This document shows, piece after piece, positions 33,694 through 38,807 of a stretch of DNA of 39,338 nt. The translations under genes and the position numbers were made by a program. The notes beneath the pieces are model-generated. The model was given only the letters and a program-made list of their open reading frames with translations. It did no database searches and had not been told where the DNA came from. Each line of letters begins with the position of its first letter. The first letter of the stretch is position 1. Source of the DNA: Bacteroidota bacterium (GTDB lineage Bacteria; Bacteroidota; Rhodothermia; Rhodothermales; Bin80); assembly GCA_028875125.1 (NCBI GenBank), contig JAPPGC010000029.1:1-39338 (forward strand), in the 5' to 3' direction.

Positions 33694-34353
33694 ATGCGAA
33701 CGAAGACAAAAAAGAAATTTGATCTCCAGGACCTTGAAGAAAAGTCCGGGTATGGAAGCCTGACTGAGTCGGAACTCGAGGAATTGTTTATTGAAGAAAC
33801 TGCTCCAAAAACTGGCGGCTCCATTAACCTGCCAATCATAGCCGGTATCGGTCTGATCGGCGTGGTTTTTCTGAATATTCTGCAACAAATTGGGCTTCTG
33901 CCGGGAAGTGGGCTTCAGGAGGCCTTCATAGTGTTTCCGCTTTTTGGGATCCTGTTGGTTCTGCTATTCGGTCTCATGCCCAGAAAACGGAAAAGACGCC
34001 GAAAACGATGGGGTCACGCGGTGAAGCAAAAACTAGATTCTCTGCGGGAACAACAAAAGCGTTCCGAAGAGGGAAAAGAAGCGCGCAGCACAGAAGGGAA
34101 CGTGAAGACCAACATCCCGACACAATCACAAACAGGAAAGTGGAACCTTCCGGCTAAATCGCGAGACAAGTGGCTAGCTGGCGTATGTGCCGGGATTGCT
34201 CCACATACTAATGCGGATGTTGGTACACTGCGGCTGATTTTTGTCCTGAGCGCCATCATTACTGGAGGAACCATCCCTACAATAGCATACATCGTCTTGG
34301 CAATACTAATGCCCCCGCCGGATGATGATGAAACATCAAGCACCGGGTCATAG
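33694..34353 (+). CDS. PspC-domain membrane protein (long form)
   Basis: A 219-residue protein. The N-terminal 45 residues are acidic (ESELEELFIEE), then two hydrophobic segments (about 47-62 and 75-92), a very basic stretch (RKRKRRRKRWG), and a C-terminal PspC domain (about 155-212) with KWLAGVCAGIAPHTNADVGTLRLIFVL. It begins directly after the cyclo-ligase stop. A shorter version of the same architecture is encoded at 34860-35384, so the two are paralogues. PspC domains act in envelope-stress sensing in some bacteria; that role here is inferred only from the domain. Confidence 0.85.
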   Translation: MRTKTKKKFDLQDLEEKSGYGSLTESELEELFIEETAPKTGGSINLPIIAGIGLIGVVFLNILQQIGLLPGSGLQEAFIVFPLFGILLVLLFGLMPRKRKRRRKRWGHAVKQKLDSLREQQKRSEEGKEARSTEGNVKTNIPTQSQTGKWNLPAKSRDKWLAGVCAGIAPHTNADVGTLRLIFVLSAIITGGTIPTIAYIVLAILMPPPDDDETSSTGS

Positions 34354-34665
34354 ATATGACTCGATTCTCTCTTTAATTTCTCGCGCGGATTTGTGGCTTC
34401 CACTAACTTTGGGCAAATTGTCGTCCATGCGCACAATCTAGTGTACATGACAAATGTCAATCAGTGTATCGGTTGATCCCGTGAGCGTGAGCAACTCAGC
34501 TGCTACTACGGCCTGACCTAGTAAAACAGATGTGCCGCCGAATATCCGATCTGAGGACACAGAAGCCAATAGTTGCAACCAAAATATTGCTTATGTCGTA
34601 ATACAATTTGGATGCCTTCAAACAAAACTGTTGCTGTACGCCCTTTCGACAGCCCACAAAAGACG
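34354..34665. other. Spacer between PspC genes
   Basis: No gene was seen. The frame of the following PspC gene stays open back to a TTG at 34573, but the extra 31 residues are unlike PspC proteins, so I treat them as untranslated. A promoter for the two following genes may lie here. Confidence 0.3.
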
Positions 34666-34860
34666 ATGAGTTACAACCGTGGACGCCTAATTCGCTCGCA
34701 ATCTAATAAAATGGTCGGAGGAGTCTTATCCGGCCTTGCAAGACACTATGGCCTAGACCTTACATGGCTTCGCATAGGGGTTGTGTTAGCAAGTTTTGTC
34801 ACATTCGGTACAGTTGTTGTTTGCTATATTGTAGCGATGTTTCTCATGCCAACAGAGTAG
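34666..34860 (+). CDS. Small stand-alone PspC-domain protein
   Basis: A 64-residue protein consisting of only a PspC domain: MSYNRGRLIRSQSNKMVGG, then GVLSGLARHYGLDLTWLRIG and a terminal hydrophobic helix ending MFLMPTE. This is the usual size of free PspC proteins. I chose the ATG at 34666; an ATG at 34612 would add 18 residues. Its stop codon overlaps the GTG start of the next gene (TAGTG), showing that the two are translated as a pair. Confidence 0.83.
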   Translation: MSYNRGRLIRSQSNKMVGGVLSGLARHYGLDLTWLRIGVVLASFVTFGTVVVCYIVAMFLMPTE

Positions 34861-35384
34861 TGACGACTAGATCCCACTTATCGGAACTGGAGCTGAGCAC
34901 CCAGTCCAGTGATGCACTCGAAGAAATGTTCTTCGAGACAGAGTCTCGCTCGGCGTCCAAGATCAACTGGCACCTTGTTGGGGGTGGTACACTCCTGATC
35001 GGAATTTTTCTCTATGTACTTTCGGAGATCGGTATACTTGGGAGTGGGTTCGTAGATGGGTTAGGCCGCATAACTCCCTTTGCGGCGATCTTTTTCATGG
35101 GCATTGCGGCAACCAGCGCCCTGCGCACGAAGCGGACACGCCGCGTACGTACCGTTTCCTCCAGACACCTCGTTCGACCACGCAAGAAACGTTGGTTATT
35201 TGGCGTCTGTCGTGGATTGGCGGAGCGCTTCGGGATGCCCGTGGGGATATTGCGACTGCTTTTCCTCGCAACTGCCATAGTTGCAGGGGGTTTTGGACCC
35301 GGGGGATTGGTCATTATTGCGTTGTACGTGATCATGGCGCTCGCCATACCAAGCGAGGAGACGAACCGTAGGGGCTCATCCTGA
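34860..35384 (+). CDS. PspC-domain membrane protein (paralogue)
   Basis: A 174-residue protein beginning at a GTG that overlaps the previous stop. Its order of parts copies the protein at 33694-34353: acidic LEEMFFETES, a hydrophobic pair, a basic TKRTRRVR segment and a C-terminal PspC domain with KKRWLFGVCRGLAERFGMPVGILRLLF. The upstream open frame from 34764 lies inside the previous gene and is a shadow. The cluster therefore reads long form, short form, long form, consistent with a tandem duplication around a single-domain gene. Confidence 0.84.
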   Translation: MTTRSHLSELELSTQSSDALEEMFFETESRSASKINWHLVGGGTLLIGIFLYVLSEIGILGSGFVDGLGRITPFAAIFFMGIAATSALRTKRTRRVRTVSSRHLVRPRKKRWLFGVCRGLAERFGMPVGILRLLFLATAIVAGGFGPGGLVIIALYVIMALAIPSEETNRRGSS

Positions 35385-36416: not shown

Positions 36417-36941
36417 TCACTTCCTTTCGGAACTGAGATTCTCTGGTTCAAGTGATTCCCGACTCAGCCTTTCAAGGGTTGAAGCTATTTCTGCTAACTC
36501 TCCCGTCGTTAGATGTACCTCAACTATGATGTTGTTTTTTCTAGGTATCAGTGGCACCATTTCCCACGCTTCCCACCGGGCTCCATTGGTCAACACCGCG
36601 TAGCGCGCTCCGATTTCCGTTGCGTATCCAGACGCTTGTCGCCGGTCAGTTTCCCTCGGGCCTGCACCCGCAGGCTTTGCTTCTACAACAGCAAGGACGC
36701 CGCCTGACGACGACATGAGAACGTAGTCTACCCTGTTGTTCTTACCAGCCCAATGTTCCAACCGGACCTGTAGTGGATCCCTGACATTCCAGCCCAGTGC
36801 GGCCATTATAACGTCTACGACAAGCATTCGTGTCGCCGTTTCGTTTCCGGCGAGGTATTCGTGATGGCCCTTTAGGGTCTCGCGAGCTTCCGCGATGCTC
36901 TTCTCAAGTAGGGACATCATCCTATCCTTTGTTACAGCCAA
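36417..36941 (-). CDS. Stand-alone PD-(D/E)xK nuclease, HsdR N-terminal-like
   Basis: A 174-residue protein matching the N-terminal nuclease domain of type I restriction R subunits. Visible motif elements are NETATRMLVVDVIMAALGW (33-51), RVDYVL with Asp72, VVEAKP with Glu87 and Lys89 (the ExK), and QASGYATEIGARYAVLTNG with Gln102 (101-120). No helicase domain follows. The start is TTG at 36941, supported by a very strong ribosome-binding site (GGAGGAGGG, six bases upstream) that lies inside the last codons of the DUF6527 gene. It is the last gene of the ubiquitin-like operon, and I infer it to be the effector. Confidence 0.85.
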   Translation of the reverse strand: MAVTKDRMMSLLEKSIAEARETLKGHHEYLAGNETATRMLVVDVIMAALGWNVRDPLQVRLEHWAGKNNRVDYVLMSSSGGVLAVVEAKPAGAGPRETDRRQASGYATEIGARYAVLTNGARWEAWEMVPLIPRKNNIIVEVHLTTGELAEIASTLERLSRESLEPENLSSERK

Positions 36942-36944
36942 GTA

Positions 36945-37385
36945 TTACCCTCCTCCCCACCTTACCAAGGAACGAAGCATTTGCCAAATTGGTTTCTTCA
37001 AATTGCACCTGACTATCCTTCTAGGCAGCTCCTCTATCAGTGCATCGGGTCCCTTCTGATAATAGCCGTCACGCCGCGTCTTGGCCTCTTTCCGTACTGA
37101 AATGACCTCGGTTTCAGAGAAGACTCGCGCCCACCGAACGCTCCCTTTTTCCACCCAGTAATGCGACCTGCAAGGAAAGCTCCAGTTTCCAATTGATGGC
37201 GCCAATGATACCGAGTCGCCATCGTATGTGAGTTCCCATTCGGCCGGGCCAAGAGGTGTCACCACCTCTTCTCCACACCCACAGGCACATCGGTGAACGA
37301 CGGTACCAAAACGAAATGACACATAAAGGACGTTGTCGTCCAATTGTTTTGGTATGTAGTCCACAAATTCGTGGCGCAATTCCAT
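36945..37385 (-). CDS. DUF6527 protein (predicted Ubl-processing or peptidase component)
   Basis: A 146-residue protein with the DUF6527 hallmarks: EFVDYIPKQL at the start, LYVSFRFGTVVHRCACGCG with Cys33, Cys35 and Cys37, then PLGPAEW, LAPSIGNWSFPCRSHYWV with Ser64, Cys72, Ser74, His75 and Tyr76. The Cys residues look like metal ligands. As I recall, recent biochemical work on Bub operons treats this family as a Ubl-specific peptidase; this was not checked. The last residues WGGG are encoded by the ribosome-binding site of the next gene. It starts 23 nt after the E1 gene. Confidence 0.88.
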   Translation of the reverse strand: MELRHEFVDYIPKQLDDNVLYVSFRFGTVVHRCACGCGEEVVTPLGPAEWELTYDGDSVSLAPSIGNWSFPCRSHYWVEKGSVRWARVFSETEVISVRKEAKTRRDGYYQKGPDALIEELPRRIVRCNLKKPIWQMLRSLVRWGGG

Positions 37386-37408
37386 TGGAAATGGTCTTTA
37401 TTCCTCGA

Positions 37409-38560
37409 TTACTTATTGCTCATTTGATTTCCGTCGATCGTGTAATTGCTCCGGGTTTCTCGACCAAAGTCCTGATAGAACCCACGATGCTTCTTCCATC
37501 GGATCACCGCTAAAGCTGCGTTCAGAGCGTTCAGTTCTACAATCTGAACGTTTCTTTCGTACTCCCCTACGTTCCGTAGTCCGTTCTCGTCACTTTGCAC
37601 AACCGAGCTCTTCAGTGTCTCGCAGAAGCTCGTTCTGATGATCCCAAACAGTTTGTCCTCCGTCCTCTCAATTCCCATTCCGACGTCGACGAACGCCACC
37701 CCCATGTTTTTTAGTTCCGGCAGCAGCCACCCTCTGGTCTCGTTGTTATCAACAGCAACGAAGACAAAGTCAAGGGCAGCAAGCACCTTAACATTACTGG
37801 GCTTAACATCGAATCCGTGCACGATGACACCACTCCTCATCTTCTCATATCTCTCCTTGTACAGTTGGACCTTTGTCAGATTTCTCTCAAGGTCCTCAAT
37901 TGTCGATGCGCCCGGTGCGCGGAACGCGTTATGCTGCGCAAAACGATCACCGTCAAACAAATGGATCTCCGCAACACGCGTTTTACTGACGAAATCCAAG
38001 ATGTACGATCCGGTGCCTCCAAGCCCAACTATGCCAATCTTGTCGTTGGAAAGACTCTCGTTCAGCCGCGTTATACCTACACGGCTTGATGCAGTCTCCA
38101 TGAACACGAAGGGGTCATCCGGGTCCGCCGAGGACACCAGTTTTCCCTTAAATACGATGGCGATAGGATCGATTCGTCTTGCACACCGCCCCATCACTTG
38201 CGCATAGTGCGTCAGTTTGTGATGGTAGTCCGTGTAGGATCCTGTAACCGGCTTGGCCGAGAAGCGGTGATCTACCCATAAGCCTACAGCAAGTTCTTGG
38301 CGATTACTGCTGTTCCGCAAGGCTTCAATCGGCGCACCCTGATCATCGCAGGGGTATTCGCCCGCAAAGTATATTGTGTGATCTGGCGGTGGACCTGCTT
38401 CAATCAATGAACAAACGAGCTTGCCATACTTCACGGCTCGGCTGCTTGTAACGTACGGGACGTCATGTAGAACCAAATATCCAGAGCGGACCTCTAGATG
38501 GTAGCCTTCTTCTATGAGACGCTTGAGGTCTTCCCTATGATTGATCAGTTCTCGTGACAT
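37409..38560 (-). CDS. ThiF/E1-like Ubl-activating enzyme with N-terminal fused domain
   Basis: A 383-residue protein. Residues about 172-350 form the adenylation domain: the nucleotide loop GIVGLGGTGS (176-185), Asp203 and Asp205 in LFDGDRF, Asn211 and Arg214, Lys230, and Asp271 with Arg276 in VDNNETRGW. The crossover-loop region TSFCETLKSS has the only nearby cysteine, Cys313, with Ser311, Ser318 and Ser319 as other candidate acceptors. There are no CxxC zinc pairs. The N-terminal 170 residues, with VDHRFSAKPVTG and YTDYHHKLTHYAQ, resemble DUF6791, and may stand in for a separate E2. It overlaps the Ubl gene by 26 nt. Confidence 0.9.
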   Translation of the reverse strand: MSRELINHREDLKRLIEEGYHLEVRSGYLVLHDVPYVTSSRAVKYGKLVCSLIEAGPPPDHTIYFAGEYPCDDQGAPIEALRNSSNRQELAVGLWVDHRFSAKPVTGSYTDYHHKLTHYAQVMGRCARRIDPIAIVFKGKLVSSADPDDPFVFMETASSRVGITRLNESLSNDKIGIVGLGGTGSYILDFVSKTRVAEIHLFDGDRFAQHNAFRAPGASTIEDLERNLTKVQLYKERYEKMRSGVIVHGFDVKPSNVKVLAALDFVFVAVDNNETRGWLLPELKNMGVAFVDVGMGIERTEDKLFGIIRTSFCETLKSSVVQSDENGLRNVGEYERNVQIVELNALNAALAVIRWKKHRGFYQDFGRETRSNYTIDGNQMSNK

Positions 38561-38807
38561 TTACTATCGTTCCGTCACGAACCTTAAGCGCTTGCCCTTC
38601 GTCCAACTCTCCCTCCGAGATTCGGCCACCAGCCTCTCGAAACGTGATTGTAAATACGATCAGCGGGCCCCTCGCCGGATTGGCAAAGGCCAGGTCAACC
38701 AGCTCGTCAAACGACAGTTCATCCTGCTCGACTGACTCTGGCCGCCCGTTGACGGTTATTGAAAACGTCTTATCGTCTGGCTGATCTAAGTGGTTTCTCT
38801 TGTCCAT
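38535..38807 (-). CDS. Ubiquitin-like protein of the multiubiquitin family, single domain
   Basis: A 90-residue protein. After a 13-residue polar tail, residues 14-88 form one beta-grasp domain: FSITVNGRPESVEQDELSF, DELVDLAFANPARGPLIVF, FREAGGRISEGELDEG and LKVRDGTIVNVTRTDQS. The ending VTRTDQS matches the family's conserved TD-x-S tail; there is no diglycine, so the last residue used for conjugation would be set by trimming or is unusual. The ATG at 38807 has GAGGG eight bases upstream. It is first of four genes, and the E1 gene overlaps its end. Confidence 0.9.
   Translation of the reverse strand: MDKRNHLDQPDDKTFSITVNGRPESVEQDELSFDELVDLAFANPARGPLIVFTITFREAGGRISEGELDEGQALKVRDGTIVNVTRTDQS

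What the first reader, a model, noticed from the sequence alone, without database searches (positions are those of the whole stretch)
37409..38560. E1 with a fused N-terminal domain and no separate E2 in the operon
Seen: 170 residues before the ThiF fold, with VDHRFSAKP and YTDYHHKL, like DUF6791; only one cysteine (Cys313) in the crossover region, next to Ser311, Ser318 and Ser319. No E2, E3 or JAB gene is adjacent. Inferred: the N-terminal domain may do the E2 step, and acyl transfer may use either Cys313 or a serine (oxyester) acceptor.
Basis: partly seen in the sequence, partly recalled or inferred. Interest (0 to 1): 0.68.

Follow-up and report, generated by a model that had tools for sequence, protein, structure and literature searches.

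The report
Bacterial ubiquitin-like operon with E2-like E1
This is one copy of a widespread bacterial operon that resembles our ubiquitin machinery; the enzyme that activates the small tag protein carries a front domain which probably stands in for the missing second enzyme and may hand the tag on through a serine instead of the usual cysteine.

Summary
The gene is real: minus strand, 38560-37409, 383 aa, DUF6791 (residues 10-156) plus a ThiF-type E1. It sits in a compact operon: one-domain Multi_ubiq Ubl, E1, DUF6527 zinc finger, then a small restriction-type nuclease domain. This is the 'domain X' form of operon type 6e described by Iyer et al. in 2006, so it is not new as a system. It is a sister of the JAB-E1 'Bub' operons.

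Cys313 is Cys in only 6 of 99 homologues, and a 70%-identical relative has Arg there. Ser318 and Ser319 are not conserved; Ser311 is always Ser or Thr. Cys71 is conserved in closer relatives but lost in deep ones.

The E2 idea gains support. DUF6791 operons never carry Prok-E2_E (0/95 loci; 8/8 JAB-type loci do). In two genomes DUF6791 is a separate gene in the E2 slot. Profile (p 0.007) and fold comparisons lean towards UBC, but neither is significant alone. Best reading: a diverged E1-E2 fusion, probably working through oxyesters. Biochemistry untested.

The parts
38535..38807 (-). Ubl gene, 90 aa, one Multi_ubiq (beta-grasp) domain, encoded C-terminus ...NVTRTDQS (no Gly)
   Evidence: PF14452 E 2.5e-12; similar to solved Ubl 9cd2
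38535..38560 (-). 26-nt overlap of the Ubl stop region with the E1 start; same length in 90 of 91 homologous loci
37409..38560 (-). E1-like enzyme, 383 aa: DUF6791 fused to a ThiF adenylation domain
38093..38533 (-). DUF6791 domain (residues 10-156), proposed E2-like domain
   Evidence: PF20590 E 8e-43; domain model pLDDT 93.5
38258..38260 (-). Ser101 codon, Ser in 98 of 99 homologues, proposed acyl acceptor of the E2-like domain
38348..38350 (-). Cys71 codon; Cys in 93 of 99, replaced by His/Tyr/Leu/Arg in deep-branching members
37688..38062 (-). ThiF adenylation domain (residues 167-291) with GGTG181-184, D205, N211, R214, K230, D271
37622..37624 (-). Cys313 codon: not conserved (Cys in 6 of 99)
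   Evidence: Arg in the 70% identical L018
37559..37561 (-). Tyr334 codon, 98 of 99; positional counterpart of BubCD Tyr370
36945..37385 (-). DUF6527 protein, 146 aa, C-x3-C-x34-C-x2-H metal-binding pattern
   Evidence: PF20137 E 1.6e-26; present in 94 of 95 related loci
36417..36941 (-). 174-aa HSDR_N_2 (type I restriction R N-terminus, PD-(D/E)XK-like) gene, TTG start, same operon; remnant in relative L017
   Evidence: PF13588 E 1.2e-7; L017 downstream of DUF6527

Best explanation
The operon makes a Ubl, an E1 with a built-in E2-like domain, and a DUF6527 zinc-finger protein that may choose or present targets. Step 1 (supported by invariant residues): the ThiF domain adenylates the Ubl C-terminus, which is encoded already mature and ends in Ser, so no JAB protease is needed. 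Step 2 (inferred): the Ubl passes to a hydroxyl residue, Tyr334 of the E1 part and/or Ser101 of DUF6791, as an oxyester. Step 3 (inferred): DUF6791, a strongly diverged UBC/RWD-like domain that replaces the separate BubB-type E2, delivers the Ubl to a target, perhaps with DUF6527. The biological role is probably anti-phage or stress response (inferred from relatives).
For: Adenylation residues D205, R214 and K230 are in 99/99 homologues and D271 in 98/99. Best solved relative is Citrobacter BubCD, by profile (E 1.3e-9) and by fold (E 2e-13). Prok-E2_E is in 0/95 DUF6791 loci but 8/8 JAB-type loci; DUF6527 is shared. DUF6791 is a separate gene between Ubl and ThiF in L011 and L014, where Prok-E2_E sits in JAB-type operons. 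hhalign of DUF6791 against Prok-E2_E gives p 0.007, collinear, against 0.07-0.15 for JAB and reversed decoys. 39 of the top 50 PDB matches of the domain model are UBC/UEV/UFC1. Ser101 98/99 and Tyr334 98/99; Prok-E2_E has no conserved Cys but a conserved RWSRH Ser; depositors mutated BubCD Tyr370 in the E1-E2-Ubl complex (position).
Against: No single fold or profile match of DUF6791 to UBC is significant (best Foldseek E 0.39, TM about 0.4; hhalign probability 5%). The Ser101-to-RWSRH correspondence is a hand alignment. Tyr334 and Tyr370 are matched by position before the last helix in a poorly predicted stretch, not by a clean alignment. The aim of the Y370F mutation could not be read. No conjugate has been shown for any DUF6791 E1 in the sources I could read.
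Confidence: 0.5

Rival explanations
1. DUF6791 is not catalytic: it is a Ubl- or peptide-binding clamp that positions the Ubl tail on the ThiF domain, as the N-terminal domains of MccB and PaaA are thought to do. Conjugation, if any, is direct from the adenylate.
For: MccB and PaaA are among the best fold matches of the full model; both are N-terminal-domain-plus-ThiF enzymes; the Ubl does not end in Gly.
Against: It does not explain the strict replacement of Prok-E2_E, the E2 slot of split DUF6791, or near-invariant Ser101/Lys103 and invariant His61.
Confidence: 0.24
2. DUF6791 is a cysteine E2: Cys71 takes the Ubl as a thioester.
For: Cys71 is in 93/93 of the closer homologues, next to invariant Pro70 with His61 and Gly75 nearby.
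Against: Deep members with intact operons have His, Tyr, Leu or Arg there while keeping Ser101. Prok-E2_E, the E2 it replaces, has no conserved cysteine.
Confidence: 0.14
3. DUF6791 is a functional analogue of the JAB protease, as Iyer et al. 2006 speculated, since it occupies the fused position of JAB.
For: It replaces JAB at the N-terminus of the E1; it has several conserved polar residues.
Against: No JAB-like profile or fold match (decoy-level p 0.07; none in top 50); no JAMM motif; the Ubl has no C-terminal extension to cut; DUF6791 also replaces the E2.
Confidence: 0.08
4. A separate E2 lies elsewhere in the genome and the E1 only adenylates.
For: The genome is about 98% complete, so a gene could be missed; the contig ends 530 bp upstream of the Ubl.
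Against: No Prok-E2_E, Prok-E2_A or Prok-E2_B in the genome (only E2_E has a positive control), and 0 of 95 related loci carry Prok-E2_E nearby.
Confidence: 0.04

Closest known systems
Operon type 6e with 'domain X' (Iyer, Burroughs, Aravind 2006, PMC1779556)
   Same: Ubl with 1-3 Ub-like domains, E1 with a non-JAB N-terminal domain, and a metal-binding protein; sporadic and mobile.
   Different: Nothing that I could test; the 2006 paper guessed a JAB-like role for domain X, whereas the evidence here points to an E2-like role. The match of domain X to DUF6791 is inferred from the operon description.
Bub operons (Citrobacter BubA/BubB/BubCD, PDB 9ea4-9eav; Gong 2025, Ye 2026, cited in PMC13373217)
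   Same: Multi_ubiq Ubl, ThiF E1 (closest solved relative) and DUF6527; Tyr before the last E1 helix.
   Different: No JAB and no BubB (Prok-E2_E); DUF6791 instead; Ubl ends in Ser, whereas the Citrobacter Ubl construct ends at Gly229. Whether the Bub papers already cover the DUF6791 form could not be read.
Ubl of PDB 9cd2 (ZDHYS365 multi-ubiquitin domain protein)
   Same: Nearly identical to the Ubl next to a DUF6791 E1 in Buttiauxella (L068), so the Ubl of this operon type has a solved structure.
   Different: Three-domain Ubl; the window's has one domain.
CBASS Cap2 (E2-E1 fusion)
   Different: Cap2 is larger, with a linking 'wing' domain, acts on a CD-NTase rather than a Ubl, and (established knowledge) uses cysteines.

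Membership tests
Operon type 6e, domain X form (Iyer 2006) | E1-like ThiF protein with an uncharacterised non-JAB N-terminal domain | tested here: met
Operon type 6e, domain X form (Iyer 2006) | Adjacent protein of one to three Ub-like domains of about 70-75 aa | tested here: met
   one Multi_ubiq domain; longer, apparently multi-domain Ubls in relatives
Operon type 6e, domain X form (Iyer 2006) | Conserved metal-binding protein with a Cys/His signature | tested here: met
   DUF6527 with C-x3-C-x34-C-x2-H; the 2006 text prints the last pair as H-x2-C
Bub pathway (JAB-E1 form) | BubB: Prok-E2_E protein or domain | tested here: not met
   absent from the genome and from 95 related loci
Bub pathway (JAB-E1 form) | JAB domain fused to E1 | tested here: not met
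   DUF6791 instead
Bub pathway (JAB-E1 form) | E1 of the BubD type | tested here: met
   best solved relative by profile and fold
Bub pathway (JAB-E1 form) | Protein conjugation activity | not testable with these tools
   needs biochemistry
E2 / UBC fold (for DUF6791) | UBC/RWD fold | tested here: inconclusive
   39 of top 50 PDB matches are UBC-type but best E 0.39; hhalign p 0.007
E2 / UBC fold (for DUF6791) | Catalytic cysteine | tested here: not met
   Cys71 lost in deep members
Classical E1 with catalytic crossover cysteine | Conserved Cys in the crossover region | tested here: not met
   Cys313 in 6 of 99
E1/ThiF adenylating enzymes | ATP and adenylation residues (GxGGxG, Asp, Arg, Lys, Asp) | tested here: met
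CBASS Cap2 | E2 and E1 catalytic cysteines, CD-NTase partner | tested here: not met
   no cysteine conserved throughout; partner is a Ubl; only weak PADLOC E1-E2 hits over the ThiF part

The most novel reading that the evidence does not exclude
DUF6791-ThiF proteins are a second, widespread kind of E1-E2 fusion that carries a ubiquitin-like protein ending in Ser through serine/tyrosine oxyesters, with no cysteine in the relay; DUF6791 is a diverged BubB-type serine E2.
Probability: 0.4. Interest if true: 0.78.

Novelty: new member of a known kind. Interest (0 to 1): 0.52.

Why it matters
If DUF6791 is a serine E2, a complete ubiquitin-like relay would be packed into two or three small genes and would work without cysteine chemistry. 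That is directly testable and bears on how E1-E2 relays evolved.

Tried and rejected
Cys313 as active site: rejected. Ser318/Ser319: not conserved. Ser311: always Ser/Thr, so not excluded, but it lies on a strand. Cys71 as universal E2 nucleophile: first favoured (93/93), then weakened by deep plasmid members. JAB-like role: no support. Reading Ye 2026 and Gong 2025: not held; literature searches found only citations. More Prok-E2_E from viral contigs: the alignment was not conserved enough. Viral fold library: nothing significant. A composition test for horizontal transfer was not run.

Full report
WHAT IS THERE. The minus strand of 36417-38807 holds a tight gene set: a 90-aa Ubl (38807-38535, Multi_ubiq E 2.5e-12), the 383-aa E1 of the finding (38560-37409), a 146-aa DUF6527 protein (37385-36945, E 1.6e-26) and a 174-aa HSDR_N_2 gene (36941-36417). 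The E1 has DUF6791 at residues 10-156 and ThiF at 167-291; NCBI's unnamed family PRK06153 covers its whole length (E 9e-136). The window is a whole contig of a 3.3 Mb, 98% complete genome that holds no other DUF6791, DUF6527 or Multi_ubiq gene.

CONSERVATION. Ninety-three full-length E1s were aligned, later 99 with deeper members. Adenylation residues (D205, R214, K230, D292 in 99/99; N211 and D271 nearly so) match the MoeB/ThiF pattern, so adenylation is very likely intact; that mapping is by established motif spacing. Cys313 is Cys in 6/99; L018, 70% identical, has Arg. Ser318 and Ser319 are not conserved; Ser311 is Thr 93 / Ser 6. Invariant or nearly so: H61, G67, P70, G75, S101 (98, one Cys), K103 (94 + 5 Arg), Y334 (98; the exception, L141, has a Tyr one residue off), Q339, N344. 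Cys71 is 93/93 in the first set but His, Tyr, Leu or Arg in deep plasmid members whose operons are otherwise intact.

OPERON LOGIC. In the same phylum, other DUF6527 loci carry a JAB-E1 instead. Their upstream gene, or a C-terminal extension of the Ubl, is Prok-E2_E, the family of Citrobacter BubB (E 1.8e-20). Synechocystis pSYSX, a genome used by Iyer et al., shows the order Ubl, E2, JAB-E1, DUF6527. An HMM of Prok-E2_E hits 0 of 95 DUF6791 loci (978 kb) and 8 of 8 JAB loci (the HMM was built partly from those); JAB hits 2 of 95, weakly; DUF6527 is in 94 of 95. In L011 and L014 DUF6791 is a separate gene between Ubl and ThiF, i.e. where the E2 sits. So DUF6791 replaces JAB and E2 together. 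JAB may be dispensable because the Ubl is encoded without a C-terminal extension: its last residue is Ser in 90 of 91, whereas the Citrobacter Ubl construct ends at Gly229.

FOLD. The full E1 model (90 sequences, pLDDT 88) is closest to Citrobacter BubCD (9ea4, E 2e-13); the same relative is best by profile (E 1.3e-9). The domain alone (pLDDT 93.5) has no significant PDB match, but 39 of the top 50 are UBC, UEV or UFC1 (best E 0.39, TM about 0.4); in viral structures a UBC is second, also not significant. hhalign of DUF6791 with Prok-E2_E gives p 0.011 with 7 sequences and 0.007 with 20, collinear from the N-terminal helix on; decoys (JAB, reversed families) give 0.07-0.15. By eye, the DUF6791 block F-S-x-K-P followed by Tyr and the last helix corresponds to R-W-S-R-H followed by Trp and the last helix of Prok-E2_E, placing Ser101 opposite the conserved BubB serine. 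This is suggestive, not proven.

E1 RESIDUE. PDB 9eav is titled BubCD(D104A/Y370F)-BubB-BubA(155-229). In a closely related plasmid protein (L138) D104 is the JAMM aspartate and Y370 lies in ERGY-ITG just before the last helix; other JAB-type E1s keep a Tyr there. Tyr334 lies seven residues before the last helix of the window E1. I read it as the counterpart; the purpose of Y370F could not be read. From memory only, Ye et al. reported oxyester intermediates for Bub; that paper is not held, so this is a lead, not evidence.

KNOWN OR NEW. Iyer et al. 2006 (PMC1779556) describe this operon form, including the unknown N-terminal domain and the metal-binding protein, and speculated about a JAB-like role. 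The Ubl of a DUF6791 operon (L068) is nearly identical to PDB 9cd2. No DUF6791 domain is matched by any PDB chain. The known bacterial E2-E1 fusion is Cap2 (PMC12355090). The window is therefore a new member of a known kind; what is added is the evidence that domain X takes the E2's place and that its conserved acceptor candidate is a serine.

ROLE. Several DUF6791 loci have a helix-turn-helix gene plus an ImmA/IrrE peptidase gene upstream, like the CapH+CapP controllers reported for Bub operons, which have not been shown to protect against phage (PMC13373217). The set occurs on plasmids (113 records) and is absent from six genomes of the same genus, two of which have Prok-E2_E instead.

Noticed in passing
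38535-38560; L003-L096: The Ubl and E1 genes overlap by exactly 26 nt in 90 of 91 related loci across many phyla, so the last eight residues of the Ubl and the first nine of the E1 share DNA; the one non-overlapping locus (L055) keeps the Ubl tail.
   Followed up: partly
L017:5150-8856: In a Chloroflexi MAG the operon, with a decayed remnant of the HSDR_N-like fourth gene, lies inside an aldehyde dehydrogenase gene; no clear terminal repeats seen.
   Followed up: partly
window 36417-36941: A lone 174-aa type I restriction R N-terminal (HSDR_N_2) gene follows DUF6527 by 3 nt; a possible nuclease partner of this sub-lineage.
   Followed up: partly
L011:1474-2674, L014:762-1947: Natural split of DUF6791 and ThiF into two overlapping genes.
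   Followed up: yes
L093 (Qipengyuania MAG): The one homologue with Cys instead of Ser at position 101, a natural Ser-to-Cys swap at the proposed acceptor; a Ser follows directly, so the alignment is not certain.
   Followed up: no
L140 (Rhizobium sp. 32-5/1 plasmid): DUF6791-E1 annotated as three overlapping pieces: an apparently broken copy.
   Followed up: no
L137 (Acinetobacter johnsonii plasmid pXBB1-8): A JAB-type Bub operon next to a Tn7-like TnsE gene and an ISAba1 transposase.
   Followed up: no
window 33694-35384: Three PspC-domain genes in a row beside the operon, the last two overlapping.
   Followed up: no
whole window: The host is probably a Bacteroidota-related genome: contigs of two same-phylum genomes match Bacteroidetes/Bacteroidota records in length (L004/L089, L010/L073), while the closest E1s are from Chloroflexi and Gammaproteobacteria MAGs.
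   Followed up: partly
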